NCBI RefSeq assembly: GCF_000342045.1 | Contig: NZ_AONQ01000001.1 | Coordinates: forward strand, 1 to 64,000 | Length of the DNA stretch: 64,000 nt | Source of the DNA: Paramagnetospirillum caucaseum | GTDB taxonomy: Bacteria; Pseudomonadota; Alphaproteobacteria; Rhodospirillales; Magnetospirillaceae | Reading direction: 5' to 3' | Part shown: piece after piece, positions 624 to 16,770 of the stretch | Layout: each line of letters opens with the position of its first letter | Position numbering within the stretch: position 1 is the first letter of the stretch | Translations under genes and position numbers: made by a program | The notes under the pieces: generated by a model | The model's database searches: none | What the model was told of the DNA's origin: nothing | Seen by the model: only the letters and a program-made list of their open reading frames with translations

Positions 624-627
624 GCCG

Positions 628-1427: not shown

Positions 1428-1478
1428 ACCACAAAAATTACACTGCCTGGGAGCAGTTTTTGCGCTGACATTTCGATG

Positions 1479-1596: not shown

Positions 1597-1610
1597 AGGC
1601 GGGATGAATT

Positions 1611-2168: not shown

Positions 2169-2518
2169 ACTGGATTCGGTATTGTTTTGTTCTCAAGAAA
2201 TGAAAATCGCATCATTGCTTTTTCAAGAATAGCCTTTTCCATTTCATCGCGAATGATTTTTAGCTCTTCAAGGCCCTCAGTCAGTGCCTCTGCTTCGTCT
2301 TCATTATCAGTTTCTGATAGCGCAATTTCCGTGTCTGCTTTGATTCTGTCTATTTGAATTCGAAACATACAAAGTGGGTAAATTCCTGGTTCTCGACCTC
2401 TCGATGTCGTGGAACTAAACCAAGATGGCTCCATGCCCCATAATCTACTAAATTCGCGCTGGCTATAGACAGCGCCCATTTCTAAAAACTCCGCATATAA
2501 TTCTTTCAAATTCCTCAT
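2141..2518 (-). CDS. Small DUF6626-like protein
   Basis: About 125 residues beginning MRNLKELYAEF, with SQREFSRLWGMEPSWFS, which reads as a short helix-turn-helix-like region near the N-terminus and resembles the DUF6626 family. The rest is acidic and helical (ETDNEDEAEALTEGLEELKIIRDEMEKA), likely a coiled coil. An ATG three codons earlier is also possible. A/T-rich codon use unlike the resolvase beside it. Proteins of this kind occur on plasmids and prophages; function unknown. Confidence 0.6.
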   Translation of the reverse strand: MRNLKELYAEFLEMGAVYSQREFSRLWGMEPSWFSSTTSRGREPGIYPLCMFRIQIDRIKADTEIALSETDNEDEAEALTEGLEELKIIRDEMEKAILEKAMMRFSFLENKTIPNPVQASAERTR

Positions 2519-2981
2519 TCGAATCACCTTTGCAAATTGCTACCTGTGTAGCTATTTATCAAATGATTCAAATTTTCTGTTCGTTATTTATTTTTTAATT
2601 CATGGAATTTTTTCTCGATAAAATTAAGCATGACTGCCATCGCTTCGCTCGGCAGCGCATGCGTCGCTGTGAACGCCGTCGCTCGCATGCTCGCTCGGCT
2701 TATCTCGCGACCTATCGCTTTCGCTCCTGTACAAATTCATATTTTATAATATTAATATTTCCCCTGTATGGGCGCGAAGGGAATAGGTTTTATCCCCCCT
2801 GGAATATCTCAACATAATTAAATATTCCAAGGGGGATAATCTCTTCACTTCGGCATGGTATGCTTCGGTCAAGGTTCAATGTTCGGGCGGTTTTCAATGT
2901 TTGAAACAATGCAGGCGGTTATCCTGTACCTGCTTTAACCCGGATTAACTGTCTCCACGACAACAACGGTTCAGCAACAAT
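2519..2981. other. A/T-rich intergenic stretch without a convincing gene
   Basis: No frame here has both a ribosome binding site and protein-like composition; the plus-strand frame at 2602-2817 looks accidental (Arg/Cys-rich from repeated cgct runs). The only clear structure is the long hairpin at 2790-2839. Confidence 0.5.
2790..2839. repeat. Long inverted repeat / hairpin
   Basis: Two 18-base arms, TTATCCCCCCTGGAATAT (2790-2807) and its near-perfect complement ending at 2839, with one mismatch and a loop of about 14 A/T-rich bases. It has no T run, so it is not a typical terminator. It could be a protein binding site, the remnant end of a mobile element, or the stem of a small RNA. Confidence 0.6.
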
Positions 2982-3134
2982 TTAAACTGATTGGGTAAGT
3001 CTGTCTGTCCCACTCTTGCTCAATATGGCAAGCAGTGTTTGGTGTGGATTTCGTTCGGCCATGTCCAAAATAGTATTCATCGACAAGTTTGCTGCTGATG
3101 ATGGTTGATAATTTCTAATCAGAGCCATCGTCAT
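2982..3134 (-). CDS. Small hypothetical protein (50 aa)
   Basis: A 50-codon frame beginning MTMALIRNYQPSSAAN and ending in DRLTQSV. The ATG at 3134 is preceded by GTAGGAGAA, a good ribosome binding site, and the protein has a helical middle (NTILDMAERNPHQTLLAIL). No family recognised. Supported by the start signal and composition only. Confidence 0.4.
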   Translation of the reverse strand: MTMALIRNYQPSSAANLSMNTILDMAERNPHQTLLAILSKSGTDRLTQSV

Positions 3135-3325
3135 TTCTCCTACGCCGTCAGCGAGGGTGCCACTTTGTTTACAGTCGCGGCGGCAATCTCAAGGCATCCC
3201 ATGGGGCTTGGATTTGCTTACAATTCGACTTGGTGGCGGTGCCCACCTCAACTACCCGTTATGCGTATAAAGTTAAATATATGCGTTGGTAGGCTTTAAT
3301 AACAACAACACCGCTGTAATAATAT

Positions 3326-3553
3326 TTAGTTCAATTTCCTAATTTTATATCTTTCCGCAATTTCTGCAAATAATTTCTCTAGCTCGTCCTTGAGCATTTC
3401 GGGGTGGTCATTGACGAGTTGAGCCATTAACTTGGCTCTCCAACTGTCACGCTTCGAAACAAAGTCTCTTCGTAAATTCAGGGGGCGGCGAAAGTGCATT
3501 CCTTGAATGAATTTTATTGATGCCATTGTTTTGCTCTTACCTTTGTAATTCAT
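3326..3553 (-). CDS. Small basic hypothetical protein (75 aa)
   Basis: Starts MNYKGKSKTMASIKF after TGAGGATATTT, which is why the ATG at 3553 is preferred to the in-frame TTG four codons earlier. The central part (RRPLNLRRDFVSKRDSWRAKLMAQLV) is basic, followed by an amphipathic helix (HPEMLKDELEKLFAEIAERYKIRKLN). No family recognised. A strong terminator-like hairpin lies just upstream of the gene. Confidence 0.5.
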   Translation of the reverse strand: MNYKGKSKTMASIKFIQGMHFRRPLNLRRDFVSKRDSWRAKLMAQLVNDHPEMLKDELEKLFAEIAERYKIRKLN

Positions 3554-3570
3554 AAATATCCTCAAATAAC

Positions 3571-3605
3571 AAAAACCCCCAAGGGTCGCACGCCTTGGGG
3601 GTTTT
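3571..3605. terminator. Bidirectional rho-independent terminator
   Basis: Stem CCCCCAAGG / CCTTGGGGG around an 8-base loop, with AAAAA on the left and TTTT on the right, so it can work on both strands. It sits upstream of the 3326-3553 gene and insulates it from the minus-strand gene at 3818-4015. Confidence 0.85.
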
Positions 3606-3817
3606 CACTTATTGTCCACTACTGGACGCCGAAAACACATTGAACTATTGTGCGACCTTGTTCATATCTATTTATCATTTTCTCTTAAATTCACGGCTAA
3701 ATCAATTTAATTCTCGACTTTACGAAAATTCTGGTGTCGGAAAAATTGTCCAGCAAACGGACATTGTGGGGAGTGGCGGCGAGGTATGAGCCCGCCGCCA
3801 CCATCGTTGATATCTTG

Positions 3818-4015
3818 TTATGGTTTTGAGTCTGAATTTTTCAGATAACTGCTTATGTTTTCGTCGGATGTGAAAAAATATGCGCCCTTCATTTCATTCA
3901 TTAACGAATAAGATGTTGGCATATCCACCTCTATGGCGTTTTCAACCTCACCCCAGTATGTTCCATTCCACCATTCCTTCAACTTCGAACCTAACATTTG
4001 TCTTGATATGTACAT
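3818..4015 (-). CDS. Small hypothetical protein (65 aa)
   Basis: Starts MYISRQMLGSKLKEWWNGTYWGE at an ATG preceded by AGGAGATGCT. Acidic and aromatic-rich, ending YLKNSDSKP. No family recognised. Acidic small proteins occur on mobile elements, some as DNA mimics, but nothing here shows that role. Its transcript would end at the bidirectional terminator at 3571-3605. Confidence 0.45.
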   Translation of the reverse strand: MYISRQMLGSKLKEWWNGTYWGEVENAIEVDMPTSYSLMNEMKGAYFFTSDENISSYLKNSDSKP

Positions 4016-4122
4016 AGCATCTCCTATTTGTTATTTTACAATGTTCTCGCGTGAGCGAATTTTCGTCAATTTAATTTTATGGCGACAGAGCTTAAGTCTG
4101 CCACCAATGGGAAAATCCCCAC

Positions 4123-4317
4123 TTAGGACTGACGCAGTCTGATTTTGGTTGCAATATTTTCATCCAGAAACTCATCCCACATGATTCGTATCAGGTCGAA
4201 ACCATACGCATCAATGTTGTCATTGATGAATGTCTTGAACCGTTGAATTATCGAATCATCAACGTCTTTATCTGTGAACATCTCAACCATATCCCGTGTT
4301 TTAAATTTGAAATTCAT
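4123..4317 (-). CDS. Small acidic hypothetical protein (64 aa)
   Basis: Reads MNFKFKTRDMVEMFTDKDVDD, then helical segments including DAYGFDLIRIMWDEFLDENIATKI. The ATG at 4317 is preferred because AAGGAG lies 12 bases upstream and leaves no gap before the ATG at 4329. Strongly acidic and A/T-rich. No family recognised; possibly co-transcribed with the small gene at 3818-4015. Confidence 0.45.
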   Translation of the reverse strand: MNFKFKTRDMVEMFTDKDVDDSIIQRFKTFINDNIDAYGFDLIRIMWDEFLDENIATKIRLRQS

Positions 4318-4623
4318 CTCGATTGGCATCTCCTTGCGTTGTTATCCGTGGCCAGAGTTACTCAAACTGCCCACACACGTATGGTCGCCGCCCGGTGCCG
4401 ATTTTGGCAATTTAATTTAAAAATTGACATGCGGTTTTTCGGATTTAGCTGACGTAGCGTTGCAATTATGCAACATGCGATTAACCCTAGCGTGTACTTT
4501 TCCACGCGATACAATGTGTTCAGAATTTCAGAATTTCAGAATGAGGCCCCATTGACCTCCTTCGCTTTTTCACCATAGGCTTTTCGAGCCGATGGCCATG
4601 CTGGGCAACGGGAGGGTGGCGCA
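4318..4623. other. Intergenic region upstream of the restriction-modification operon
   Basis: About 300 A/T-rich bases between divergent genes. It should hold the promoter of the helicase-mod-res operon. A GTTGCAATTATGCAAC dyad is visible around 4457-4472, a possible operator. Nothing coding was recognised. Confidence 0.4.
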
Positions 4624-7600
4624 TTGCGTCTCATTAAAAACAGCGGGAACGACCGCGTCATCGACGAACTGCGTCATTGCCTTCACTCGAAGTCCTCACT
4701 GGATATAGCATCCCCCGAGTTTTCCCTGTTTGCCTTCGCCGAGTTGATGGACCTTTTGGCGGGCGTCGAGCAGGCTCGGTTGGCCTTGCCCTCACCTGAC
4801 CGCAACGACTGGGCAATGCTTGGCAACGAGTCGGACAGGGCGTTTCGCAATCGGCTGCAAATCCGCTGGCTCGCCAAGCAATGCGCTGACTGGGTGGCGA
4901 CGAAGGCCGAAATCAAACAGGCCAGCAGTTCCATTCCGCAATCGACCATGGTTGTCCGTTCCGACGCAGGCGTCCCGAGTCGCGTCATCACGGGCACCAG
5001 TTCATTTTCCACCAGCGGACTGGGCCTTACGCCGAATCACCAACTCAGCCTCATCCAGGCGGCGGAAAATGCCGATGAATGTTCGCTGTTGGCCTCATGG
5101 TTCGACGGCCTATGGTCAAGTCTGCCTGTAACCGGGGATGCCAAGGTCAACCTGCTTGCGCGGTTGCATGAATTGTCGGCCCATCGGCGGCCTTCGCTCA
5201 TCTACTACCTGACGCTTTTCCACCTGTTCAAAGACCTCGGCGACGAACTCGATGAGGAAAAAATCATCAAGTCGGCCACGGGCATCAAGAACAGCGTTGT
5301 CTGGCAGAAGCTCTACAAGTTCCAGCGGGACGGCGTTGTCGGGGCCATCGACAAACTGGAACGCCACGGCGGCTGCATCATCGCCGACAGTGTCGGCCTT
5401 GGCAAAACCTTCGAGGCCTTGGCCATCATCAAATATTACGAACTGCGAAACGACCGCGTGCTGGTGCTGGCACCGAAGCGGCTTCGCGACAACTGGACCA
5501 TTTACAAGGCCAACGACCGCCGGAACGTACTCGCCGCCGACCGTCTGCACTACGACGTTCTGAATCACACCGACCTTTCTCGCGAGGGTGGCCAGTCCGG
5601 CGACATCAACCTGTCGCACATCAACTGGGGCAACTATGATTTGGTTGTCATCGACGAGTCGCACAATTTCCGAAACAAGATTACCCACCAGGGTAGGGAA
5701 AGCCGCTACGACCGCTTGATGCGTCAAATCATTCGCGAAGGTGTCAAGACCCGAGTGCTGATGCTCTCGGCCACTCCCGTCAACAATCGGCTCGCTGACC
5801 TCAAAAACCAGATTGCATTCCTCACCGAGGGAGCGGACGGGGCACTCGACGGCCATGGCATTCCCAGCATCGAGGCGACGGTTCGTCAGGCCCAATTGCA
5901 GTTCAATCGCTGGCTTCGCCTGGAGGAGGCCGACCGCAGACCGTCGCGGTTAATGGACATGCTCGGCTTCGACTATTTCAAGCTGCTCGACCTGCTGACC
6001 ATTGCCCGCTCCCGGAAGCACATCGAAAAGTATTACGGCACCGCCGAGACAGGCACCTTTCCGACGCGCTTGAAGCCGCTCAACATCAAAGCTGATGTGG
6101 ATTTGGCGGGCCAGTTTCCGGCCATCCGCGATATCAACAACGAGATTCGGCGGCTGAACCTGAGCCCCTATGCGCCGTTGCGGTATGTCCTGCCGCACAA
6201 AATGGCGGATTACGACGCCAAGTACAGCACCCGCATTCGCGGCGGCCAGAGTTTTTTCCGACAGGCTGACCGCGAGGAAAGCCTGGTGCATCTGATTCGC
6301 GTCAATCTGCTGAAACGCATGGAAAGTTCCGTGGCGTCGTTTGCCTTGACCTTGAAGCGGCAACTCGGCGGCGTCGATGCCTTGCTTGCCCGCATTGATG
6401 CTCACGAGGATTCTGTCGAGGAACTGGACATCGACGACGTGGAAATCGACGACCCCACCTATGAGTCGCTGCTGGTGGGCCGCAAGGTCAAGGTGCTGTT
6501 GCAGGACGTTGATAGGGTGCGTTGGCGTCAGGACTTGCAGGAGGACCGCAACCGCCTTGCGACGCTGCTCTCCGCCGCCGAGCAGATATCGGCAGAGCGG
6601 GATGCCAAATTGGCGGCGCTTCGTAAACTCATTGCCAACAAGGTCAGCCAGCCCATCAATGCGGAAAACAAGAAGGTCATCATCTTCACCGCTTTCGCCG
6701 ACACGGCGATGTATCTGTATCAGGAACTGTCGGGCTGGGCGCAGAAGGAACTCGGCGTGCATTCGGCGGTGATTGTCGGGGCGGGCAGCAATAAGACCAA
6801 TCAGCCCAAGTTGCGGACGGACCTTGCCTCCCTGCTGACGGCGTTTTCACCGCGCTCGAAGGAGCGGCCCGCCGAATTTTCCAGCGAGGGCGATATCGAT
6901 TTGCTCATCGCCACCGACTGCATATCGGAAGGCCAGAACCTGCAAGACTGCGACTACCTCATCAACTACGACATTCACTGGAACCCCGTTCGCATCATTC
7001 AGCGGTTCGGACGAATCGACCGCATCGGCTCACCGAACGCCAGCATCCAGCTTGCCAATTTCTGGCCCAACATGGAGTTGGAGGAATACATCAATCTCGA
7101 ACAGCGGGTGAGCGGCAAGATGGTCTTGCTCGATATCTCGGCCACGGGTGAGGAAAACCTCATCGAGCAGCAATCGGGCAATCAGATGAACGATTTGGAA
7201 TACCGCCGCCAGCAACTCTTGAAGCTGCAAGACACAGTCATCGACCTCGAAGACCTGTCCAGCGGCGTCTCCATTGCCGACCTGACGCTGAACGATTTCC
7301 GCATCGACCTTGCGGGCCACTTGCGGGAACACCCAGGAATGCTCGACTCCCTGCCGCTGGGTTCGTTCGCCGTCACCACGGCGGCGGAATTGGGCGATGC
7401 GGCGATTCCTCCGGGTATGGTGTTTTGCCTGCGTGCCGTTGGCGAGGCGGGAACCAATATGGCCGAATCGGGCTATCCGCTGGCTCCACACTATCTGGTT
7501 CATGTCGGCGACGATGGCGCGGTGCTGTTGCCTTTCAACCAGCCAAAGCAGATTCTCGACCGTCTGAAAAAGCTCTGCATTGGGCGCGACATGCCCGACG

Positions 7601-7830
7601 CTTCGGCCTGTGCCAGATTCGACAGGGCCACACGCGACGGCAAGGACATGGGGCGCGCCCAAGGCCTGCTGGCCAAGGCCATCGCATCGGTTGTTGGCAA
7701 GAAGGAGGAGAAGGCGGTTGCCAGTCTCTTCACTGCTGGCGGAACCCACGCCCAAAAAGGGGAGTTTGCGGGCGGCAGTGATTTTGAGGTGGTGGCATGG
7801 CTCGCCATTTTGTCGGAGGCGGCTGCATGA
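4624..7830 (+). CDS. Large SNF2-like superfamily 2 helicase of an extended type III restriction locus
   Basis: 1068 residues from a TTG start preceded by GGGAGGGTGGCGCA. Residues 1-230 are an uncharacterised N-terminal domain. Motor motifs follow: Walker A DSVGLGKT at about 256-263, DESH box at about 344-347, LSATPVNN near 381, then a long helical insertion, and the second RecA lobe with ATDCISEGQNLQDCD and QRFGRIDRIGS near 793-803. The Q-R-FGRIDRIG motif places it with SNF2-like helicases that translocate on double-stranded DNA. No nuclease motif was seen. Its stop overlaps the start of the DUF4391 gene, so the four genes to 13684 form one operon. Expected role: DNA translocation or remodelling in defence. 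Confidence 0.85.
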   Translation: MRLIKNSGNDRVIDELRHCLHSKSSLDIASPEFSLFAFAELMDLLAGVEQARLALPSPDRNDWAMLGNESDRAFRNRLQIRWLAKQCADWVATKAEIKQASSSIPQSTMVVRSDAGVPSRVITGTSSFSTSGLGLTPNHQLSLIQAAENADECSLLASWFDGLWSSLPVTGDAKVNLLARLHELSAHRRPSLIYYLTLFHLFKDLGDELDEEKIIKSATGIKNSVVWQKLYKFQRDGVVGAIDKLERHGGCIIADSVGLGKTFEALAIIKYYELRNDRVLVLAPKRLRDNWTIYKANDRRNVLAADRLHYDVLNHTDLSREGGQSGDINLSHINWGNYDLVVIDESHNFRNKITHQGRESRYDRLMRQIIREGVKTRVLMLSATPVNNRLADLKNQIAFLTEGADGALDGHGIPSIEATVRQAQLQFNRWLRLEEADRRPSRLMDMLGFDYFKLLDLLTIARSRKHIEKYYGTAETGTFPTRLKPLNIKADVDLAGQFPAIRDINNEIRRLNLSPYAPLRYVLPHKMADYDAKYSTRIRGGQSFFRQADREESLVHLIRVNLLKRMESSVASFALTLKRQLGGVDALLARIDAHEDSVEELDIDDVEIDDPTYESLLVGRKVKVLLQDVDRVRWRQDLQEDRNRLATLLSAAEQISAERDAKLAALRKLIANKVSQPINAENKKVIIFTAFADTAMYLYQELSGWAQKELGVHSAVIVGAGSNKTNQPKLRTDLASLLTAFSPRSKERPAEFSSEGDIDLLIATDCISEGQNLQDCDYLINYDIHWNPVRIIQRFGRIDRIGSPNASIQLANFWPNMELEEYINLEQRVSGKMVLLDISATGEENLIEQQSGNQMNDLEYRRQQLLKLQDTVIDLEDLSSGVSIADLTLNDFRIDLAGHLREHPGMLDSLPLGSFAVTTAAELGDAAIPPGMVFCLRAVGEAGTNMAESGYPLAPHYLVHVGDDGAVLLPFNQPKQILDRLKKLCIGRDMPDASACARFDRATRDGKDMGRAQGLLAKAIASVVGKKEEKAVASLFTAGGTHAQKGEFAGGSDFEVVAWLAILSEAAA

Positions 7831-8615
7831 GTTTTGCCGCATTCCTCGATGCACTGGCATTGCCTGCCGATGCCAAGGTCGAGCAGAGAGTTCCAAAGAA
7901 ACTGCTGGTGGAGCAAGGGGCACCGACGGCGGCGGACAAGCGCCAAATTCAAGACGGCATCGACGAATTGCAATGGGTCGCGGCGCTGAAGCCGACAAAC
8001 ATCGGCGTCCCCATGTTCCGCGACGCTGACCGTGAATATCTTGAAATCGCCGTTTTGACGGCAGTCTTCCGCCAGAACGCCAAGGCGGCCCGATTGATTG
8101 AACTCATTCATCGGGCGATTCCCTACCCGGTCCTGCTGGTGTCGTCATTCCTCGATGCGGACAAGCGGTGTGTCAACGTGTCGGCGGCACACAAGCGGTT
8201 TGCCCAGAATGAAGCGGGCAAGTTCGTCATCGATGAAATCCTGACCACGAGCCCCATCGCCCAGGATGTGGTGACCACCGCGACCGCGCAGGCATTTCTC
8301 GGTTCGCTTGCGTTGTCCAGATTGCCAACCCGTGACCTTTTCGCTTTCTATCAAGGCTGGATGGATGGCATCGTCGGCCTCGCAGCATCCAGCATAACGG
8401 GCCGATTCTCCTTGCCTGAATCGCCCGAGCAAACGCGACAAATGAGAGAATCCATCGCCAGGAATTCACGTATCATCGACGAGCTATCCGCGCTACGGAC
8501 GCAGGCGGTCAAAGAAAAACAGATGAACCGACTCGTTGAACTGAACATGAATATCAAACGGCTGGAATCTGAATTGGCCGCGAACCAATCCGCATTAAAC
8601 GGAATACATTTGTGA
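7827..8615 (+). CDS. DUF4391 family protein, partner of the helicase and methyltransferase
   Basis: 262 residues starting MSFAAFLDAL; the ATG overlaps the helicase stop (ATGA). The N-terminal two thirds match the DUF4391 layout (KVEQRVPKKLLVEQGAPTAADKRQIQDGIDELQWVAALKP, then YLEIAVLTAVFR and an EL.HRAIPYPVLL strand). The last 60 residues form a coiled coil (IARNSRIIDELSALRTQAVKEKQ and onward). DUF4391 proteins are typically found beside type III-like methyltransferases and helicases; no catalytic site is known. It may bridge helicase and modification subunits. Only 10 bases separate it from mod. Confidence 0.75.
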   Translation: MSFAAFLDALALPADAKVEQRVPKKLLVEQGAPTAADKRQIQDGIDELQWVAALKPTNIGVPMFRDADREYLEIAVLTAVFRQNAKAARLIELIHRAIPYPVLLVSSFLDADKRCVNVSAAHKRFAQNEAGKFVIDEILTTSPIAQDVVTTATAQAFLGSLALSRLPTRDLFAFYQGWMDGIVGLAASSITGRFSLPESPEQTRQMRESIARNSRIIDELSALRTQAVKEKQMNRLVELNMNIKRLESELAANQSALNGIHL

Positions 8616-8625
8616 GAGCCACGCT

Positions 8626-10644
8626 ATGAAAAAAATCGACGCCAATGACCCAGCATCCCAGTCCGCAGACATTGTCACCGACAATTTGTCGCAACTGAAA
8701 TCTCTGTTTCCCGAGGCGTTTGCCGAAGGAAAAGTCCAGTTTGACGTGCTCCGGCAGTTGCTGGGCGGCGCTGTCGATGAGGCGGACGAGAAATACGGCC
8801 TCAACTGGCACGGCAAGCGTCGGGCACGGCAAATCGCCTTGACGCCGAGCACTGGCACGTTGCGGCCTTGCCCTGATGAAAGCGTTGATTGGGACACCAC
8901 ACAGAATCTGATGATTGAGGGCGACAACCTCGAAGTGTTGAAGCTCTTGCAGAAAAGTTATGCGGGGAAGGTAAAACTCATTTACATCGACCCGCCTTAC
9001 AACACGGGCAAGGACTTCGTTTATCCAGACAACTTTCAAGACAGCATTAGAAGCTATCTCGAAATAACAGGGCAGGTTGATGGTGGCAACAGACTAACGG
9101 CAAATACGGAGTCAAGTGGTCGTTTTCATACAGACTGGCTTAATATGATGTACCCGCGATTGAGGCTTGCCAGAAGCCTGTTACGTGAAGATGGTGCCAT
9201 AATAATTTCTATTGATGAGAAGGAATTGCAGCATCTGAGATTGTTGGCGAACGAAATATTGGGCGAGGAAAACTTTGTTGCGACTGTCAGTGTTGTTTCT
9301 AATATGAAGGGTAGAAATGATAAAAAGCATATTGCTGCTTGTCATGAATATATCGTCATATACGCAAATCCAAAATTCATATCAAATGGACTACCTCTGA
9401 CGGATGAACAAAAGGCTGCATTCAAGTTTACTGATGAGGACGGCTATAGATATGCGTTGAGAGACCTTCGTAAAAGAGGTGGCCCTGACCGTCGAGAGGA
9501 TAGGCCAAAAATGTTCTTCCCAATTTACTGGGATGTAACATCCGATAAGTGTTCGATGGAAAGGGTTTCTGCCACAGATATTGAAATATATCCCTACCGG
9601 GGCGATGGAGCAGAAGGGCGTTGGCGATGGGGTAAAGAAAAAGTAATGAGTCATCTCGACTGGCTCAAAGCTAAGCGTTCTGAGCGCACAGGACGTCTTG
9701 ATGTTGAGCATCGTGTTTATCTCGACCCCAGCAAATCTCTTGAATCTGAAGTTGATGATGACCTTGATGATGATGACGACGAAGAAGCAGTCGAGCGGAC
9801 ATCAAAGCCGAAATCAATTTGGATTGGGGGAGAGCTTTCCAGTGATAGTGGCAAGCGGTCTCTAAAGGAACTTTTACCCGGAACTGCGTTTGATTTTCCG
9901 AAATCGGTTGAACTTATTAGGACGTGTGTGCTTATCGCAACATCAAAAAATGATATAGTGTTGGATTTCTTTGCGGGTTCGGCCACAACGAGTCAATCGG
10001 TCATGGCACAAAATGCCATTGATGGACATAGCCGCCGATTTATCATGGTTCAGTTACCAGAGCTTCTTGATATTAAAGATAAAGACCAGAAAGCTGCCGC
10101 AGCATTTTGTGATTCTATTGGTCGCCCAAGAAACTTGTCAGAGATAACAAAAGAGCGAATGCGTCGGGCTGGAAAGAAAATTAAGGATGACAACCCTCTC
10201 TTCTCTGGCGATACAGGATTTAGAGCATTTAAACTTGATGCATCGAACATCCGTGCATGGAACCCAAACCCAGAAAATATTGTGTCGTCGCTGTTGGAGC
10301 ACCATGAGCATTTGCTGGAAGATAGAACTGAGGCCGACGTAATCTATGAATTGCTGTTGAAGCTTGGCCTCGATTTGTGCGTTCCGATGGAATCACGGAC
10401 GGTGGCTGGCAAGTCGGTCAAGGCCGTCGGCGACGGCGTGCTGATGCTGTGCTTGGCCGAAAAACTGGTAGCCACGGAAATCGAGGCGGTCGCGGCTGGT
10501 ATCGTGTCATGGCACAAGGAGCTTGCCCCTGCGGGCGATTCAACCGTGGTGTTCCGCGACAGTGCATTTGACGGCGACGTTGCCAAGACCAACATGGCCG
10601 CCATCCTCGCCCAGAACGGCCTCGAAAACGTTCGCAGTCTGTGA
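8626..10644 (+). CDS. mod: Type III restriction-modification DNA methyltransferase (Mod, beta class)
   Basis: 672 residues. Catalytic motif DPPYNTG begins at about residue 122 and the AdoMet-binding motif FAGSATT near 449, the order of beta-class N6-adenine methyltransferases such as type III Mod. The ENLMIEGDNLEVLKLLQ segment precedes the catalytic motif as usual. Between the two motifs lies the target recognition region, with an acidic run (DDDLDDDDDEE around 380). Bases from about 9030 to 10330 are visibly more A/T-rich than both ends of the gene, as if the recognition part had been exchanged. It sets sequence specificity for the Res protein encoded next. Confidence 0.93.
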   Translation: MKKIDANDPASQSADIVTDNLSQLKSLFPEAFAEGKVQFDVLRQLLGGAVDEADEKYGLNWHGKRRARQIALTPSTGTLRPCPDESVDWDTTQNLMIEGDNLEVLKLLQKSYAGKVKLIYIDPPYNTGKDFVYPDNFQDSIRSYLEITGQVDGGNRLTANTESSGRFHTDWLNMMYPRLRLARSLLREDGAIIISIDEKELQHLRLLANEILGEENFVATVSVVSNMKGRNDKKHIAACHEYIVIYANPKFISNGLPLTDEQKAAFKFTDEDGYRYALRDLRKRGGPDRREDRPKMFFPIYWDVTSDKCSMERVSATDIEIYPYRGDGAEGRWRWGKEKVMSHLDWLKAKRSERTGRLDVEHRVYLDPSKSLESEVDDDLDDDDDEEAVERTSKPKSIWIGGELSSDSGKRSLKELLPGTAFDFPKSVELIRTCVLIATSKNDIVLDFFAGSATTSQSVMAQNAIDGHSRRFIMVQLPELLDIKDKDQKAAAAFCDSIGRPRNLSEITKERMRRAGKKIKDDNPLFSGDTGFRAFKLDASNIRAWNPNPENIVSSLLEHHEHLLEDRTEADVIYELLLKLGLDLCVPMESRTVAGKSVKAVGDGVLMLCLAEKLVATEIEAVAAGIVSWHKELAPAGDSTVVFRDSAFDGDVAKTNMAAILAQNGLENVRSL

Positions 10645-10651
10645 GGCCGTG

Positions 10652-13600
10652 ATGAAACTGCACTTTGAATCCAATCTGGATTACCAGCACGCGGCCATCG
10701 AGTCGGTGTGCGACCTGTTCCGTGGCCAGGAAATCTGCCGCACGGAGTTCACGGTTTCCAGCCAGAGCGAGCGGAAGGTTCTCGGCCAAGCCGACCTCCC
10801 CTTGGGCGGCAGTTTTTCGCAAGGCCAATTCGGCCTGGTTCAAAACGAGTTGGGCGTCGGCAACAGATTGACCCTGCTCGATGATGAACTGCTCGCCAAC
10901 CTCAACGAGATTCAGCTTCGGAACGGCCTGCGTCCGTCGGCCTCGCTGGCCTCTGGTGACTTCACCGTCGAAATGGAAACGGGGACGGGTAAGACCTATG
11001 TCTATATCCGTAGCGTCTTCGAGTTGAACAAGCGATACGGCTTCACCAAGTTCGTGATTGTCGTGCCTTCAGTCGCCATCAAGGAAGGCGTCTACAAGAC
11101 GCTGCAAATCACGGCGGAGCATTTCCGCAATCTCTATGCGGGCGTGCCGTTCGATTTTTTCCTGTACGACTCGTCGAAGTTGGGACAGGTCAGGAACTTC
11201 GCGACCAGCCAAAATATCCAGGTGATGGTTATCACCGTAGGTGCCATCAACAAGCAGGATGTGAACAACCTCTACAAGGACAGCGAGAAGACCGGCGGCG
11301 AGAAGCCGATTGACCTGATTCGCTCGACCTGTCCCATCATCATCGTCGATGAACCCCAGAGCGTTGATGGCGGCCTCGAAGGACGGGGCAAGGAAGCCCT
11401 GGACAAGATGAACCCGCTTTGCACCTTGCGGTATTCGGCCACCCATGCGGACAAGCATCATCAGGTCTATCGTCTCGACGCTGTGGATGCGTATGAGCGG
11501 AAACTGGTGAAGCAGATTGAGGTGGCTTCGGCGGCAGTCGATGGCGGCCACAACAAGGCCTATGTTCGGCTGGTGTCGGTCAGCAACAAGTCCAACAAAA
11601 TCCGTGCTGTCCTCGAAGTCGATGTTCAGCGTGGAACGTCTGTGTCGCGTGACCAGATTACGGTCCAGGCCGGTTACGACCTGGAGCAATACACCAATCG
11701 CCCCATCTATTCGGGCTATCTGGTGGAGGACATCGGCTGCCGCAAGGGTGACGAGTACGTCCAACTCAGCAATCAGGAAGAACCGTTGCGTATCGGCGGG
11801 GCCATTGGTGGCGTCGATGAGGATGCTGTGAAGCGGCAGATGATTCGCCGCACCATCGAGGAGCACCTGGACAAGGAGCTTCGTTTCAACCCGCTTGGCA
11901 TCAAGATTCTGTCGCTGTTTTTCATCGACGTGGTGGAGCATTACCGCCAATACGACAGCAACGGTGCGCCCGTGAAGGGCAAATACGCCGAGATGTTCGA
12001 GGCCGAATACAAGATTGCCGCCGCCAAGCCGAAATTCCGCACCCTGTTCCATGAAATCGACCTGACGCACGAGGCGTCGGACGTGCATGACGGCTACTTC
12101 TCCATCGACAAGAAAGGAAAATGGGCACAACCCGACCTTGATGCAGATGGAGAAATGAAGAATCAAACAAGCAGGGACAATGCGGAGCGGGCCTACAATC
12201 TCATCATGAAGGACAAGGAGAAGTTGCTCGGCTTTGAGACGAAGCTGAAGTTCATCTTTTCGCACTCGGCCTTGCGGGAGGGCTGGGATAATCCGAACGT
12301 GTTTCAGATTTGTGCGCTGCGTGAAATGGGAACCGAGCGGGAGCGGCGACAGACCATCGGTCGCGGCCTACGCCTGTGCGTCAATCAGAATGGGGAGCGG
12401 CAACGCGGATTTGAGGTCAATACGCTGACGGTCGTCGCGACAGAGAGCTACGAAGATTTTGCCTTCAACCTGCAAAAGGAAATCGAGGCCGATACGGGCA
12501 TTCGCTTCGGCATCGTGGAGAAGCACCAGTTCGCAGCGATTGCCGCGCCCGACGCCAATGGCGAGGCCAAACCGCTGGGCGTGGCGAAATCCGAGGCCAT
12601 CTGGACGTATCTGAAAGAGGCTGGAATGCTCGACGCCAAGGGCAAGGTCCAGGATGCCCTTCGCACGGCCTTGAAGGACAAGACGTTCACACTGCCCGAG
12701 GAGTTCGCTTCGCAAAAAGCCGAAGTCAGTGAATTGCTGAAAAAGCTGGCGGGCGGCCTCACGGTCAAGAACGCCGACGACCGCAAGCAAATCCAGACCC
12801 GCCAAGCCGTCGTGCAGAGTGCCGAGTTCAAGGCTCTCTGGGACAGAATCAAACACAAGACAACCTATCGGGTGCAGTTCGATAATGAGGCCTTGATTGC
12901 CGCCTGCGTTCAGGCGGTGAAAGATTTACCTGTGGTCATCAAAACCCGCCTGCAATGGCGTAAGGCTGATTTGGCCATTGGCAAGGGCGGTGTGGGCACC
13001 CACGAAACCTCATCGTCAGCCCCCATCATCCTCGAAGAGCAGGACATCGAGTTGCCCGACATCCTGACCGAGTTGCAGGACAGGACTCAACTGACGCGAC
13101 GCAGTCTTGTCCGCATCCTGACCGACAGCGAACGGCTCGACGACTTCTTGAAAAATCCGCAGCAGTTCATTGACCTGGTTGCCGACTCCGTCAATCGGGC
13201 GAAGCGCATGGCCCTCGTTGATGGCATCAAGTATCAGCGCATCGGCGATGAGGCCTATTACGCACAGGAGCTTTTCAACCAGGAAGAACTGACGGGCTAC
13301 CTGAAAAACATGCTGCCTGCGACCAAGGCCGTCTATGAATATGTGGTCTATGACTCTGGCGGCGTTGAGAAGGGTTTTGCCGAGGACCTGGAGAAGAACG
13401 ACGCGGTGAAGGTCTATGCGAAGCTACCGGGATGGTTCCGTGTTCCGACGCCGCTGGGCACCTACAACCCTGATTGGGCGGTGCTTGTAGAAGTCGATGG
13501 CATGGAAAGGCTCTACTTCGTCGTGGAAACGAAGAGCAGTCTTTTCGCTGAGGATTTGCGCGACAAGGAGAGTGCAAAAATCAAATGCGGGAAGGCTCAT

Positions 13601-13684
13601 TTTGAGGCTCTGGCCGTTGGTGAAAATCCCGCCACATATTTGGTAGCGAGAAACATCAACGACCTGATGGCAAAAGTGATGTAG
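10652..13684 (+). CDS. res: Type III restriction enzyme Res subunit (helicase-nuclease)
   Basis: 1010 residues starting MKLHFESNLDYQ, 7 bases after mod. Motor motifs: ETGTGKT near 109-115; DEPQ box at about 233-236, the DEAD-box variant typical of type III Res; RYSATH near 267; REGWDNPNVFQ near 543; QTIGRGLRL near 567. The C-terminus has a PD-(D/E)xK nuclease pattern: YNPDWAVLVE near 936 and VVETKSS near 957. Res with Mod translocates and cleaves unmethylated DNA. A helical region of about 250 residues with coiled-coil character separates motor and nuclease. Confidence 0.93.
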   Translation: MKLHFESNLDYQHAAIESVCDLFRGQEICRTEFTVSSQSERKVLGQADLPLGGSFSQGQFGLVQNELGVGNRLTLLDDELLANLNEIQLRNGLRPSASLASGDFTVEMETGTGKTYVYIRSVFELNKRYGFTKFVIVVPSVAIKEGVYKTLQITAEHFRNLYAGVPFDFFLYDSSKLGQVRNFATSQNIQVMVITVGAINKQDVNNLYKDSEKTGGEKPIDLIRSTCPIIIVDEPQSVDGGLEGRGKEALDKMNPLCTLRYSATHADKHHQVYRLDAVDAYERKLVKQIEVASAAVDGGHNKAYVRLVSVSNKSNKIRAVLEVDVQRGTSVSRDQITVQAGYDLEQYTNRPIYSGYLVEDIGCRKGDEYVQLSNQEEPLRIGGAIGGVDEDAVKRQMIRRTIEEHLDKELRFNPLGIKILSLFFIDVVEHYRQYDSNGAPVKGKYAEMFEAEYKIAAAKPKFRTLFHEIDLTHEASDVHDGYFSIDKKGKWAQPDLDADGEMKNQTSRDNAERAYNLIMKDKEKLLGFETKLKFIFSHSALREGWDNPNVFQICALREMGTERERRQTIGRGLRLCVNQNGERQRGFEVNTLTVVATESYEDFAFNLQKEIEADTGIRFGIVEKHQFAAIAAPDANGEAKPLGVAKSEAIWTYLKEAGMLDAKGKVQDALRTALKDKTFTLPEEFASQKAEVSELLKKLAGGLTVKNADDRKQIQTRQAVVQSAEFKALWDRIKHKTTYRVQFDNEALIAACVQAVKDLPVVIKTRLQWRKADLAIGKGGVGTHETSSSAPIILEEQDIELPDILTELQDRTQLTRRSLVRILTDSERLDDFLKNPQQFIDLVADSVNRAKRMALVDGIKYQRIGDEAYYAQELFNQEELTGYLKNMLPATKAVYEYVVYDSGGVEKGFAEDLEKNDAVKVYAKLPGWFRVPTPLGTYNPDWAVLVEVDGMERLYFVVETKSSLFAEDLRDKESAKIKCGKAHFEALAVGENPATYLVARNINDLMAKVM

Positions 13685-13738
13685 TCCCGAGGTTCATCGT
13701 TTTTGGATGAATGGGCCGGTGCGGGAATGCGGCCCGCA

Positions 13739-14245
13739 TCAACCGAGACAATGCAGCATGCGGCGGTTGGCCCCCAGACGGCGGTCGCCGAATTCCACCA
13801 ACATGCGATTTGGCTGCGCCTGCGGTCGTAGCCTTTTGATGTGTTCGAAGGCTTGAAATTCTTGCCCTGGCCGATGCTGACAGGCCAGCAGATATGCTGC
13901 CGCCGTACTCCGACTGATACCGGCCCAACAATGGGTCAGCACCCTGGCCCCCTTCGTCAGTGTCTTGCCGAATTCCAGGATGGCCTCGGCGTGGGTGGGA
14001 GATGGGCACCCCGCGTACTCCAACAGCGCTGAATTCGAAGACGTAACGGTCATTCCATGGGCATCCCAAAAGTCCAATTTAAGGACATTCATGGAGACCG
14101 AGAATTCAGGACGGTCATCGCCAGGGTCAAGAATTGAAACGACATGGGTAGGAGCGAACTCCTCCAGCATTTCGGGCAGTTCATTGAGCCCGCAGATGGC
14201 GAGCATGAAGGGCAGATTCCACAATTTCTTGGAATTCGTAGTCAT
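13739..14245 (-). CDS. Tyrosine / dual-specificity protein phosphatase
   Basis: 168 residues. The P-loop HCWAGISRS fits H-C-x5-R-S of cysteine phosphatases, with the general-acid region upstream around ILDPGDDRPEF. The fold resembles small bacterial tyrosine phosphatase-like proteins found near mobile genes. Convergent with res, with 54 bases between stops, so it is a separate transcript. Its substrate is unknown. Confidence 0.8.
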   Translation of the reverse strand: MTTNSKKLWNLPFMLAICGLNELPEMLEEFAPTHVVSILDPGDDRPEFSVSMNVLKLDFWDAHGMTVTSSNSALLEYAGCPSPTHAEAILEFGKTLTKGARVLTHCWAGISRSTAAAYLLACQHRPGQEFQAFEHIKRLRPQAQPNRMLVEFGDRRLGANRRMLHCLG

Positions 14246-14375
14246 CCCCGGACATTACCAAATTCATACCGCAAAACCAACGCCATCCTTTCTGAAAAAT
14301 CTGAATAAAATTGATAGTTACTTAATGCTGTGAGTCTTGCTATAGTATAAAAATAATATGCCTCAGGAGGCAAGA

Positions 14376-14816
14376 ATGCTTAATCTCAAACTGTCCGACA
14401 TCAAGCGGCCTCTTGTGGCCGAAACCCGTAAAAAGTCTACTCGCGATGTTGTCGCTGATGCCATTTTGCATCAAATTTCATTGCTCAAAAATCCGGAATA
14501 CGTCATTGAGCGGACTCGCTACACCAAAGACGACCAGGGCACCTATGGCCGCAAGGTCGTTGCTCTTCCGCCGAAGCCGTGGTGGTGGCAGGCCGTCGAT
14601 GGCACCATGATGGTCCAGGTCAAGTACGGTTCCTCCACCATCGTGGAACTTGAGGCCGGTAAGCCGACCATCATCGCCGGGAAAAGCACCAAGGACGTGG
14701 AGGTGGCGCTGACCCAGGTCGCCGAAGCGGTGAAGGCGGGAAAGCTGGATGCCCAAATTGAGACCGCCAAAGCCCGCGCAAAGGACAAGCGCAAGCCCAG
14801 GAACAAGGCCAATTAG
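14376..14816 (+). CDS. DUF6641-like protein
   Basis: 146 residues starting MLNLKLSDIKRPLV after AGGAGGCAAG. Features: a basic N-terminus, Tyr-rich middle, then LPPKPWWWQAVDG, QVKYGSSTIVELEAGKPTIIAG and a C-terminal Lys/Arg-rich helix (DAQIETAKARAKDKRKPRNK). The WWW followed by a KYGS strand and a GK-x-I segment resembles DUF6641 proteins of plasmids and prophages. Probably nucleic acid binding from its basic ends; function unknown. A hairpin follows the stop. Confidence 0.65.
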   Translation: MLNLKLSDIKRPLVAETRKKSTRDVVADAILHQISLLKNPEYVIERTRYTKDDQGTYGRKVVALPPKPWWWQAVDGTMMVQVKYGSSTIVELEAGKPTIIAGKSTKDVEVALTQVAEAVKAGKLDAQIETAKARAKDKRKPRNKAN

Positions 14817-14821
14817 GCCTT

Positions 14822-14854
14822 ATGGGGCGGGATGGATGTTACCTCCCGCCCCAT
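14822..14854. terminator. Perfect 11-bp hairpin after the DUF6641-like gene
   Basis: ATGGGGCGGGA (14822-14832) pairs perfectly with TCCCGCCCCAT (14844-14854) around an 11-base loop. No T run follows, so it may stabilise the 3' end or be a weak terminator. Confidence 0.55.
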
Positions 14855-14920
14855 CCCTGGCTTCGCATTGAAGGAATATCACCAATTGTTTTCCATAAAT
14901 ATTTTTGCTATCGCTGCAAT

Positions 14921-15376
14921 ATGAATATATTTATCGATTTAGATGGCGTGGTTTTTCGAAATCCCAACAATAATGTTTGGGGTGGTGAGTGCGAGATTTC
15001 ACCACACGCCTTGGAGTTTCTTCAATTCTCTGTACTGAATTTTAACTGCTTCTGGCTTACGGCCAGAGATAGGTCTGGTAACATTAAGAATATTGAAGCT
15101 GCATTCAAGATGGCGTTGAAAGTCGAAATTATTCCTGGTGAGTTGGCCTCCTTGATTCAAGATATTCGGCCAGTTTACTGGAGCGGTACGAAAACCACCG
15201 CCATTGACCTGGAATCTGACTTCTATTGGCTCGACGATAACCCCCATCCTGACGACCTGTTGAGGCTCGAATCTGCTGGACGGCTCGACCGGTGGGTTGA
15301 GGTTAACACCGAGGTTAATTTTGATGATTTGCTCAGGGTCATGGTGCTGCTGGAGCCTCTGTCCTTCAAACGGTGA
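14921..15376 (+). CDS. Small HAD-superfamily hydrolase-like protein
   Basis: 151 residues starting MNIFIDLDGVVFRNP, the HAD motif I (DxDGV), then WLTARD as motif II (Ser/Thr position), a Lys in SGTKTTAID and DDN-P-HPDD as motif IV. The compact form, with little cap domain, resembles HAD-like phosphatases of phage and plasmid origin, some linked to RNA repair. Codons are A/T-rich. It follows the DUF6641-like gene after about 100 bases. Confidence 0.7.
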   Translation: MNIFIDLDGVVFRNPNNNVWGGECEISPHALEFLQFSVLNFNCFWLTARDRSGNIKNIEAAFKMALKVEIIPGELASLIQDIRPVYWSGTKTTAIDLESDFYWLDDNPHPDDLLRLESAGRLDRWVEVNTEVNFDDLLRVMVLLEPLSFKR

Positions 15377-15412
15377 TAAATACTCGGTGAATTTACATCC
15401 GAGGAGCAACGC

Positions 15413-15622
15413 ATGCGACTGCATCAATTTAGCCCGTCATCATTCCCTTCTACGCCAGCAAAATCGCCAGACATCTCGAATGGCGATGATGAAGGGGCTC
15501 AGGTTCTTGACGATATCAAGGCCATGGCCGCCCGCTTGAACCGGTTTCTCGATGATGCCTTTGGCAGCATTGAGGCATTTAACCGCCGCCCGAAGCGACC
15601 AGCTAAAGCAGACGAACGCTGA
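15413..15622 (+). CDS. Small hypothetical protein (69 aa)
   Basis: Begins MRLHQFSPSSFPSTPAKSPD after GAGGAGCAACGC, a good ribosome binding site. The C-terminal half is an amphipathic helix and basic tail (LDDIKAMAARLNRFLDDAFGSIEAF, then RRPKRPAK). No family recognised. It overlaps the convergent 15603-16361 gene by 20 bases. Confidence 0.5.
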   Translation: MRLHQFSPSSFPSTPAKSPDISNGDDEGAQVLDDIKAMAARLNRFLDDAFGSIEAFNRRPKRPAKADER

Positions 15623-16361
15623 GAATTTGATAGGCTTGGTCGGTCGCCGTCCAGCCCGTCTCGACACGCCTGGACCAATGAGCCAAGCTTGATGAGCCTG
15701 TTTCCGCCCCAGGGGCTCCGCATGTACAAAATCCGATTGGGGATTGCGGTGAGGCATTCTCCAGGTCGTAGACCAGTTCGTTCATTTCATCGTCCGTCAT
15801 GGATTTGGATGCCCGTGCAGCCAGTTCGCGGCTGGCGACGTGCAGGACCGTGTATTCCGCCTCCCTCTGGCATGACCGACAGGGTGTTCGGGAAATGACC
15901 TCCACGACCCCGTAATCGGATTCTGGAGCCACGCTGACCGCGTCCTTGGCGGTGATGGTCATGTCGGTCCTCGTCGCATCCTCGGCGCAGAGGGCGACTT
16001 GCATAATCCGCCCAAAAGAATCGACCATGGTCAGGGGAGAGCCGATTTCGGTCGTGATGTTGGTGATTGCTCCGGTCAGGTGGCCGAATAGCCCAAAAGT
16101 TCCATCCAGTAAGCGGGTGCGGGCTTCATTGAAGTCGGTAGCCGCCATGGAGATGCTGCCCTGGGCGGCCACGGATACATTGCCGTTTGAATAGTGCCGC
16201 AGAATCTCGATGGTCGCGCCATCGACGACTTTGCCCTCGAATTTGAGGCCCAGTCTGGAGCCACGGTCGATGGGATGTTTGGCGGCCTCCCCAACAAGGC
16301 GGAACGGTATGACGAACGTGGATAGGCTGCTGCGTTGATGGGCGGGATTTTGGTAATTCAT
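15603..16361 (-). CDS. Hypothetical protein with Cys-rich C-terminal half
   Basis: 252 residues, start ATG preceded by AAGGAGGTCTCC. The first half is beta-rich (GLKFEGKVVDGATIEILRHYSNGNVSVAAQGSI). The second half has CRSCQREAEYTV and later FCTCGAPG, two Cys pairs that could bind a metal. No family recognised. Second gene of a run on this strand after the 16384-16704 gene, 22 bases downstream of it. Confidence 0.55.
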   Translation of the reverse strand: MNYQNPAHQRSSLSTFVIPFRLVGEAAKHPIDRGSRLGLKFEGKVVDGATIEILRHYSNGNVSVAAQGSISMAATDFNEARTRLLDGTFGLFGHLTGAITNITTEIGSPLTMVDSFGRIMQVALCAEDATRTDMTITAKDAVSVAPESDYGVVEVISRTPCRSCQREAEYTVLHVASRELAARASKSMTDDEMNELVYDLENASPQSPIGFCTCGAPGAETGSSSLAHWSRRVETGWTATDQAYQILSVRLL

Positions 16362-16383
16362 GGAGACCTCCTTATAGAGGTAT

Positions 16384-16704
16384 TTATCCTGCTACGCTCG
16401 CAGCCTGTACCGAACGCTCTTTGAGAATTCCTGCCTCGATTCCGGCGGCGAGTACCGTATCACCGAGAGCGTTTCTGACCTCGTCGGGCAGAACAACGAG
16501 TGGTCGCTTCTGGCGGTCAACCGGAAGCCGAACAGCCGTCCCATTAGAGTCGGCTTCGACTCGCACCGAGTTGATGATGATTTCGATACCGGCGATTTCG
16601 ATGACAACATCGGCAAGGGCGAGCAGCCGACCACAGCCACTCACGGGAGTGATGGCAATGCACTCGCACCTGATGGCGATGCTCTCTTCGTCCGATTCGC
16701 TCAT
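16384..16704 (-). CDS. Hypothetical 106-aa protein
   Basis: Begins MSESDEESIAIRCECIAITPVSG after AGGGGCAAC. The central part reads as beta strands (DVVIEIAGIEIIINSVRVEA) followed by TAVRLPVDRQKRPLVVLPDEV, a layout slightly like small SpoVG-type nucleic acid binding proteins, though the resemblance is weak. Lies between the DUF5131 gene and the 15603-16361 gene, all on the minus strand. Confidence 0.5.
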   Translation of the reverse strand: MSESDEESIAIRCECIAITPVSGCGRLLALADVVIEIAGIEIIINSVRVEADSNGTAVRLPVDRQKRPLVVLPDEVRNALGDTVLAAGIEAGILKERSVQAASVAG

Positions 16705-16770
16705 GTTGCCCCTGCACGACCGTGATTGTAGGCTTCACAGCTATAAGGCCGCTGTGATGACCACAAACTG

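What the first reader, a model, noticed from the sequence alone, without database searches (positions are those of the whole stretch)
4624..13684. Four-gene extended type III restriction locus: helicase, DUF4391, Mod, Res
A classical type III system is just mod and res. Here a 1068-residue SNF2-like helicase with an unknown N-terminal domain and a DUF4391 protein precede them, with overlapping or near-touching genes (ATGA; 10 bases; 7 bases), so all four are made together. Two separate SF2 motors in one defence operon suggests a mechanism beyond ordinary Mod/Res cleavage, for example loading, roadblock clearance or abortive signalling. Whether this cassette is already described cannot be decided here.
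Basis: partly seen in the sequence, partly recalled or inferred. Interest (0 to 1): 0.72.

Follow-up and report, generated by a model that had tools for sequence, protein, structure and literature searches.

The report
Type III restriction with disarmed helicase
This is a bacterial defence operon in which an ordinary two-gene DNA-cutting system travels with two extra, closely co-inherited proteins: a DNA motor whose own cutting domain has decayed, and a partner of unknown function; the set occurs from an archaeon to gut bacteria, and no description of this four-gene form turned up in the papers searched.

Summary
Window 4624-13684 holds four intact, near-touching genes: SNF2-type helicase, DUF4391, type III Mod, type III Res. 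The order is conserved: all four in 60 of 80 named DUF4391 loci (15 of the 20 others end at a contig edge), and helicase-DUF4391-methylase in 14 of 14 annotated plasmid/phage records read, from an archaeon to Enterococcus. Across 73 complete cassettes helicase, DUF4391 and Res identities correlate (r 0.94-0.97) but not with the Mod recognition region (r 0.07-0.09), so the extra pair goes with Res rather than with sequence specificity.

The 'unknown' N-terminus is a phospholipase-D (HKD) nuclease fold; its catalytic residues are absent in 97 of 97 DUF4391-linked helicases and present in 6 of 6 relatives from genomes without DUF4391, which sit beside methylases. The motor motifs are intact. DUF4391 models confidently (pLDDT 95) but matched no known fold. 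The nearest published case (Murray 2021: one extra helicase 5' of mod) is different: the locus of E. coli NCTC86 that fits it has a DrmD-like helicase and no DUF4391. In 42 of 80 related cassettes extra ORFs, many of defence families, sit between core genes; not here. Verdict: a real, widespread new variant of type III restriction-modification; function untested.

The parts
4624..7830 (+). SNF2-type SF2 helicase, 1068 aa, first gene of the operon
   Evidence: SF2 motifs kept in the 97 DUF4391-linked relatives
4624..5127 (+). N-terminal phospholipase-D (HKD) fold with catalytic H, K and N replaced (approximate bounds, residues 1-168)
   Evidence: AlphaFold model of residues 1-238, pLDDT 85.9; Foldseek best SauUSI 7clg 1.6e-5, then BJ-TSA-9 and Zucchini; aligned relative L057 matches PLDc_2 3.3e-8; 0 of 97 keep H, K or N
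5296..7113 (+). SNF2/SF2 motor core (approximate bounds; Walker A at residue 258, DESH at 344, QRxGR at 793)
   Evidence: Pfam SNF2-rel_dom, ResIII, Helicase_C; motif places
7827..8615 (+). DUF4391 protein: alpha/beta domain followed by long helices
   Evidence: PF14335 1.8e-67; start by ATGA overlap; model pLDDT 94.9; no PDB or viral fold match at E<=0.001
7827..7830 (+). ATGA: overlap of helicase stop and DUF4391 start
8626..10644 (+). Type III methyltransferase Mod, 672 aa
   Evidence: PF01555 6.6e-30; PDLC03634 680 bits; EcoP15I Mod 4zcf_A 3.4e-56
9409..9783 (+). Mod recognition region as delimited for (residues 262-386, bounds chosen by me); 14% identical to relative L074 although helicase and Res are 89% identical
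10652..13684 (+). Type III restriction subunit Res, 1010 aa
   Evidence: PDLC03647 1257 bits; EcoP15I Res 4zcf_C 9.9e-64
13325..13615 (+). PD-(D/E)XK nuclease domain of Res
   Evidence: PF19778 2.6e-35; PD, E and K invariant in 73 of 73

Best explanation
The locus is one functional defence unit: a type III restriction-modification enzyme (Mod + Res) with a dedicated, non-cutting DNA motor (dead-HKD SNF2 helicase) and an adaptor with long helices (DUF4391). Shown by sequence: gene order, co-inheritance, absence of the HKD active site with an intact motor, Mod and Res active-site motifs present. Inferred: Mod recognises its unmethylated site and Res cuts as in EcoP15I; the helicase descends from the nuclease-helicase subunit of a methylase + HKD-helicase restriction system, was disarmed when it joined a system with its own nuclease, and now, docked through DUF4391, moves on DNA and helps Res in a way that does not depend on the recognition sequence, most likely by remodelling or clearing DNA so that Res can reach a productive (two-site) complex. 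That it is a unit is near certain; the specific task of the motor is a hypothesis.
For: All four in order in 60 of 80 named loci (the best 80 of 142), helicase upstream in 74 of 80 with 5 of 6 misses at contig ends; helicase-DUF4391-methylase in 14 of 14 annotated plasmid/phage records read. 20 of 21 strong helicase hits in 398 phylum genomes lie within about 520 bases of a DUF4391 match (at most two candidates per genome were scored). Identity correlations over 73 cassettes: helicase-DUF4391 0.97, helicase-Res 0.96, helicase-Mod core 0.92, helicase-recognition region 0.07. HKD residues absent in 97 of 97, present in 6 of 6 of the next-best relatives, whose genomes gave no DUF4391 match and which have an Eco57I/type ISP-like methylase directly beside them in 5 of 6 and 0.8 kb away in one. 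SF2 motifs kept in 97. The N-terminus has a PLD fold, best match the ATP-dependent restriction enzyme SauUSI.
Against: High correlation is also expected from simple linkage in an operon. The HKD loss may be one ancestral event, so 97 members are not 97 independent losses. Mod/Res of the same subfamily exist without the pair (six loci: L059, L060, L063, L066, L069, L072); three of them (L059, L063, L066) have full-length-looking Mod and Res, so the pair is not absolutely required. In Eco86II, a different three-gene system, the extra helicase was not needed for methylation nor detected in the partly purified enzyme (PMC8259958). Some loci keep helicase + DUF4391 with Mod or a Mod piece but no Res within 9.9 kb (L098, L107). 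No interaction was modelled or measured.
Confidence: 0.5

Rival explanations
1. Self-protection: the helicase-DUF4391 pair is a Mot1/RapA-like disassembly motor that strips stalled Mod-Res from host DNA (for example newly replicated, hemimethylated DNA) and so makes the restriction system safe to carry.
For: The nearest solved structures by sequence are RapA, a motor I recall as acting on DNA-bound RNA polymerase; the nuclease is dead and the motor intact; the pair follows Res, not the recognition region.
Against: Three full-length-looking two-gene loci live without the pair (L059, L063, L066); type III site orientation already protects replicated host DNA (recalled knowledge of EcoP1I/EcoP15I).
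Confidence: 0.2
2. The helicase-DUF4391 pair is a separate anti-phage module that only shares the operon with a complete type III system.
For: The operon hosts other genes: 42 of 80 loci carry a same-strand inserted ORF of at least 100 aa, with GmrSD, RhuM, Schlafen AlbA_2, DarT, Macro, Abi_2, Fic and others among 91 scanned inserts. Mod/Res can occur without the pair.
Against: I saw no other recurrent partner set of DUF4391 in the loci examined; incomplete loci only lack parts. Helicase-Res correlation 0.96. The pair has no recognised effector domain with live residues.
Confidence: 0.2
3. A member of DISARM or of the DUF499-centred BREX-related (Hma) systems.
For: The helicase gives partial matches to DrmD (139 and 163 bits) and HmaA (87 bits) models; Type-2 BREX-related systems have an HKD + SNF2 helicase (PMC12839542: passages and section 28 read).
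Against: The DrmD score of 163 bits is far below NCBIfam's cut-off of 610 and its best stretch lies in the helicase core; no DUF499 or DUF3780 and no further DISARM gene was found among the four genes or the ten neighbouring ORFs scanned.
Confidence: 0.02
4. An ordinary two-gene type III system next to unrelated genes by chance.
For: Mod and Res alone look like a complete enzyme.
Against: Conserved order in loci titled Pseudomonadota groups, Nitrospira, Acidobacteriaceae, Verrucomicrobia, Planctomycetota and Chloroflexi, and in Enterococcus and archaeal plasmids.
Confidence: 0.03

Closest known systems
Three-gene m4C type III systems Eco86II and BspHIV (Murray et al. 2021, PMC8259958; abstract, passages, section 17 read)
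   Same: Type III mod and res with an extra SF2 helicase-like ATPase gene 5' of mod, reported beside mod/res in more than 500 genomes, function unknown.
   Different: The locus of E. coli NCTC86 that fits Eco86II (NZ_LT601384 5046030-5055447) has no DUF4391 gene between helicase and mod. Its helicase is 98.6% identical to that of L159 (DrmD-type, 658 bits) but matches the window helicase over only 211 residues (33%), and its Res has no significant match to the window Res. Against the cassette helicase profile it scores 122 bits, the E. coli four-gene helicase L160 1514, the window 1842. I identified the locus by its description, having read about 142 kb of the 5.14 Mb record; BspHIV itself was not examined.
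EcoP15I / EcoPI type III restriction-modification
   Same: Mod and Res homologous (4zcf), catalytic motifs present.
   Different: Two genes only; no SNF2 helicase and no DUF4391 (recalled, and PMC8259958 introduction passage).
HKD + SNF2 helicase restriction systems (PADLOC C3a139; Type-2 BREX-related systems of PMC12839542; SauUSI by fold)
   Same: Same domain order: HKD/PLD fold, then SNF2/SF2 motor.
   Different: In the six relatives examined the HKD residues are present and a long methylase lies beside or near the helicase; here the HKD is dead and the nuclease is Res.
DISARM (DrmD)
   Same: SNF2 helicase beside a methyltransferase.
   Different: Helicase is not DrmD by the curated cut-off; no other DISARM gene found.

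Membership tests
Type III restriction-modification | Mod with beta-class methylase motifs and a variable recognition region | tested here: met
   recognition region variable
Type III restriction-modification | Res with SF2 motor and C-terminal PD-(D/E)XK nuclease | tested here: met
Type III restriction-modification | Mod2Res1 complex, ATP-dependent cutting between two inversely oriented sites, one-strand methylation | not testable with these tools
   needs biochemistry and methylome
Three-gene type III subgroup (Eco86II type) | Extra helicase of the Eco86II kind directly 5' of mod | tested here: not met
   different helicase and Res, and an intervening DUF4391 gene; rests on my identification of the NCTC86 locus
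DISARM | DrmD above model cut-off, together with DrmA, DrmB, DrmC | tested here: not met
   DrmD 162.6 bits against cut-off 610; no further DISARM gene in the four genes
DUF499-centred BREX-related (Hma) systems | DUF499 ATPase with N6-MTase and helicase (DUF3780 in type 2) | tested here: not met
   neither DUF499 nor DUF3780 in the four genes or the ten neighbouring ORFs scanned
Active HKD (PLD) nuclease | Catalytic H, K and N of the HKD motif | tested here: not met
   0 of 97 DUF4391-linked members keep H, K or N at the aligned columns (two have an HxK a few residues upstream, out of place)
PLD fold | Three-dimensional fold | tested here: met
   7 PDB matches at E<=0.001 (SauUSI 2 chains, BJ-TSA-9 4, Zucchini 1), query TM 0.39-0.45; a predicted model, moderate TM

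The most novel reading that the evidence does not exclude
A composite restriction system built from two: the nuclease-helicase of an HKD-type restriction system was disarmed and, through the adaptor DUF4391, became a sequence-independent motor subunit of a type III enzyme, giving it an activity that Mod2Res alone lacks (for example cutting DNA whose sites are few, all in one orientation, or coated). The same operon is a landing platform into which other defence genes are repeatedly inserted between the core genes.
Probability: 0.3. Interest if true: 0.78.

Novelty: new variant of a known kind. Interest (0 to 1): 0.6.

Why it matters
Type III enzymes are textbook two-gene systems, and an extra helicase beside some of them has been reported, without a function, since 2021. 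This locus shows a second, different solution: another SNF2 motor with a dead nuclease domain plus a protein family (DUF4391) that has no assigned function, matched no known fold here, and is named in one paper of the library searched. It poses a clear, testable question (what does a non-cutting motor do for Res?), would give names to many 'helicase-related' and 'DUF4391' genes, and suggests a detection rule (PADLOC-DB 2023 returned no model for DUF4391). The varied genes inside related cassettes are a further source of defence candidates.

Tried and rejected
DUF4391 as a known nuclease or other fold: the AlphaFold model is good, but there is no Foldseek match at E<=0.001 in the PDB or the viral library, and the best profile match to solved chains is E 0.015 to a mitochondrial ribosomal protein. 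Its function stays inferred.

DISARM, BREX-related and Eco86II-type membership: tested, not met.

Viral contigs: a single-protein scan found no relative; the profile scan found 4 (L154-L157). They are not among the 80; L154, L156 and L157 are among the 73 and the 97.

Earlier readings mended on checking: Res of L069 lacks about 85 residues, but so does its tree neighbour L070, so I no longer call it damaged; L060 (short Mod) and L072 (short Res) do look damaged.

Limits of the counts. The 80 loci are the best of 142. The 80-locus scan and the 23-locus survey overlap (for example L106 and L041 are the same contig), so they must not be added. Relatedness was not modelled; the permutation control only shuffles labels. 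Rows dropped: L001-L027 (short fetches, most of them of loci fetched longer later); 1 of 74 cassettes with an identical Res; 3 of 94 same-strand inserts (in L040, L047 and L154). Pieces below the cut-offs (helicase 250, DUF4391 30, Mod 150, Res 300 bits) count as absent, such as the helicase piece in L083. In some searches at most two candidates per genome were scored. The Res tree is a quick one, drawn with a midpoint root, with long branches for L067 and L070.

Rfam gave nothing at gathering cut-offs in 1-20000; ARAGORN found no tRNA in the window.
Full report
Observation. Four intact genes lie head to tail at 4624-7830, 7827-8615, 8626-10644 and 10652-13684 on the + strand. Pfam and PADLOC identify an SNF2 helicase, DUF4391, a type III Mod and a type III Res; Mod and Res are homologous to EcoP15I (4zcf; 3.4e-56 and 9.9e-64). 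The region has lower G+C (0.49-0.59 in 2-kb windows from 4 to 14 kb) than the DNA from 20 kb on (0.62-0.73). The window starts at a contig end (C1:1-64000), and a serine recombinase (1611-2168) lies 2.5 kb upstream, as fits a mobile island.

Is the arrangement conserved? DUF4391 is uncommon: 23 of 398 genomes of the phylum including this one, 2 of 60 relatives including this one. A scan of named genomes gave 142 confirmed relatives, of which the best 80 were kept. In these a helicase of the same family lies upstream on the same strand in 74 of 80 (5 misses have under 200 bases upstream; L083 has a helicase piece below the cut-off), Mod downstream in 75 of 80, Res in 63 of 80 (12 of the 17 misses have under 3 kb downstream; L083, L098, L106, L107 and L131 have more), all four in order in 60 of 80. 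Of 50 plasmid and phage records with DUF4391 I read 14 through those hits; all 14 show helicase-DUF4391-methylase in order and 12 list a Res-like gene further on. In L028 res is interrupted by an IS element; for L180 the gene table, which is incomplete, lists none. L030 has one more gene before the methylase and L178 a 1.7-kb stretch before Res. A further record, from E. coli, shows the same order. The 14 include an archaeal plasmid (Methanomethylovorans), Enterococcus faecium and Erysipelothrix phage phi1605. Conversely, of 21 strong helicase hits (345 bits or more to PDLC01075) in the 398 genomes, 20 lie within about 520 bases of a DUF4391 match; the exception is G130.

What the helicase N-terminus is. 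Pfam finds nothing before residue 239. The exception above (locus L057) aligns with it and matches the PLD-like domain PLDc_2 (3.3e-8), with HGKLIHI...GSSNFT where the window has PQSTMVV...GTSSFST. The AlphaFold model of residues 1-238 (pLDDT 85.9) has seven PDB matches at E<=0.001: SauUSI (an ATP-dependent restriction enzyme, 1.6e-5), human BJ-TSA-9 and Zucchini; NucT and BfiI follow. Query TM-scores are moderate (0.39-0.45). That BJ-TSA-9 is itself a PLD-like pseudoenzyme is recalled, not from a call. At the catalytic columns 0 of 97 DUF4391-linked helicases keep H, K or N, whereas the six next-best relatives keep all three; the genomes of those six gave no DUF4391 match. The motor motifs are invariant in the 97 except one residue in each of two SAT columns. 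Beside or near each of the six lies a long Eco57I-type or type ISP-like methylase: directly in five, 0.8 kb away in L057; three of the six show a recognisable specificity domain. There the HKD-helicase is probably the cutting subunit. In the cassette a nuclease is supplied by Res (PD, E and K invariant in 73 of 73). The simplest reading is that an HKD-SNF2 restriction subunit was disarmed when it joined a type III system. As the members are related, this may be a single loss.

What DUF4391 is. The model is confident (pLDDT 94.9, pTM 0.89): an alpha/beta domain followed by long helices. No significant fold match in the PDB or among viral models, and no convincing sequence match to solved chains. 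I infer an adaptor, not an enzyme.

Which part does the pair work with? In 73 complete, non-identical cassettes pairwise identities correlate: helicase-DUF4391 0.969, helicase-Res 0.964, DUF4391-Res 0.940, helicase-Mod core 0.923 (0 of 500 permutations as high for each). For the recognition region they do not: helicase 0.071 (53 of 500), DUF4391 0.080 (41 of 500), Res 0.087 (34 of 500); Mod core and recognition region correlate weakly, 0.233 (0 of 500). Against L074 the window's helicase and Res are 89% identical, DUF4391 72%, the recognition region 14%. The pair thus stays with Res while specificity is swapped. Linkage alone could give the high values, but the pair evidently need not match the DNA sequence read.

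Is the pair essential? A quick Res tree (56 rows) places six Mod/Res loci without the pair in several places among the cassettes (at least five changes forced for each of the two labels), so the pair was probably lost or gained more than once. Three of the six have full-length-looking Mod and Res (L059, L063, L066), L069 lacks part of Res as its tree neighbour does, and L060 and L072 look damaged. One branch (L067, L070) carries a DrmD-like helicase directly or 160 bases upstream of Mod (705 and 657 bits). Different SNF2-type helicases have therefore become linked to type III systems more than once.

Comparison with what is known. Murray et al. 2021 (PMC8259958; abstract, passages and section 17 read) report an extra helicase-like ATPase 5' of mod in BspHIV and Eco86II and in more than 500 genomes, not needed for methylation and not detected in partly purified Eco86II. 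In E. coli NCTC86 the matching locus (5046030-5055447; I read about 142 kb of the record) is SNF2-Mod-Res with no DUF4391. Its helicase and Res are 98.6% and 99.2% identical to those of L159, a DrmD-type locus with other Mod and Res families. Its helicase matches the window's over 211 residues at 33%, and its Res does not match the window's Res significantly. By near-identity search that three-gene type matches in 186 of 5426 E. coli genomes (145 over at least 80% of its length), the four-gene E. coli type in 10 (9 over at least 80%); more diverged copies would be missed. A full-text search of the held library for DUF4391 found one paper, where it is a line in a table; the listings of five further searches showed no description of this four-gene form. 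Subscription papers, supplements and bioRxiv are not covered, so 'undescribed' is limited to that.

Cargo. In 42 of 80 named cassettes at least one same-strand ORF of 100 aa or more is inserted between core genes: 31 between Mod and Res, 23 between DUF4391 and Mod, 8 between helicase and DUF4391 (ORFs only, some may be spurious). Of 91 inserts scanned, from the wider set of loci, Pfam finds GmrSD_N in 13, RhuM 9, AIG2 9, HATPase_c_4 6, AAA_21 4, Schlafen AlbA_2 4, DUF1016, DUF4276, DUF4062, Fic and zeta toxin 3 each, DarT, Macro and Abi_2 2 each (25 of 44 families shown). The window's cassette has none.

Mechanism. Shown: gene content, order, co-inheritance, dead HKD, intact motor motifs, Mod and Res motifs. 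Inferred from EcoP15I: site recognition and cutting. Inferred with less support: DUF4391 joins the motor to Res and the motor remodels or clears DNA for Res independent of sequence. Rivals are a self-protection motor and a separate module sharing the operon; the experiments that separate them are listed under next steps.

Noticed in passing
42 of the 80 loci L074-L153; also L036, L038, L157: Related cassettes carry varied ORFs between core genes, many of defence or toxin families (GmrSD, RhuM, Fic, DarT, Macro, Abi_2, Schlafen, AAA_21, DUF4276, DUF1016, zeta toxin). In L157:10752-12275 an ORF reads to me like a reverse transcriptase (by eye, not confirmed).
   Followed up: partly
L067:8635-16973, L070:8147-16046: A DrmD-like SNF2 helicase just upstream of a Mod and Res of the window's subfamily, without DUF4391: another helicase + type III association.
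   Followed up: partly
L057, L058, L165-L168: HKD-SNF2 helicases with intact HKD residues beside or near Eco57I/type ISP-like methylases: a possible source of the cassette helicase.
   Followed up: partly
window 1611-2168; also L057:3893-4549, L174:2353-2961, L179:2754-3389, L180:2801-3409: A serine-type or 'recombinase family' gene lies roughly 0.7-2.5 kb upstream of the helicase in several loci; in the window the gap (about 2530-4620) has no listed ORF of 80 aa or more.
   Followed up: no
window 628-1427 (- strand): Small gene pair: DUF4160 protein (1155-1427) and a protein with no Pfam match (628-1191), reminiscent of a toxin-antitoxin pair (recalled, not tested).
   Followed up: no
window 21-623: C-terminal part of a UmuC-like DNA polymerase (IMS_C, DUF4113) next to the contig start.
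   Followed up: no
window 16771-18282 (- strand): DUF5131 protein with a further C-terminal region without a Pfam match, in the same lower-G+C island.
   Followed up: no
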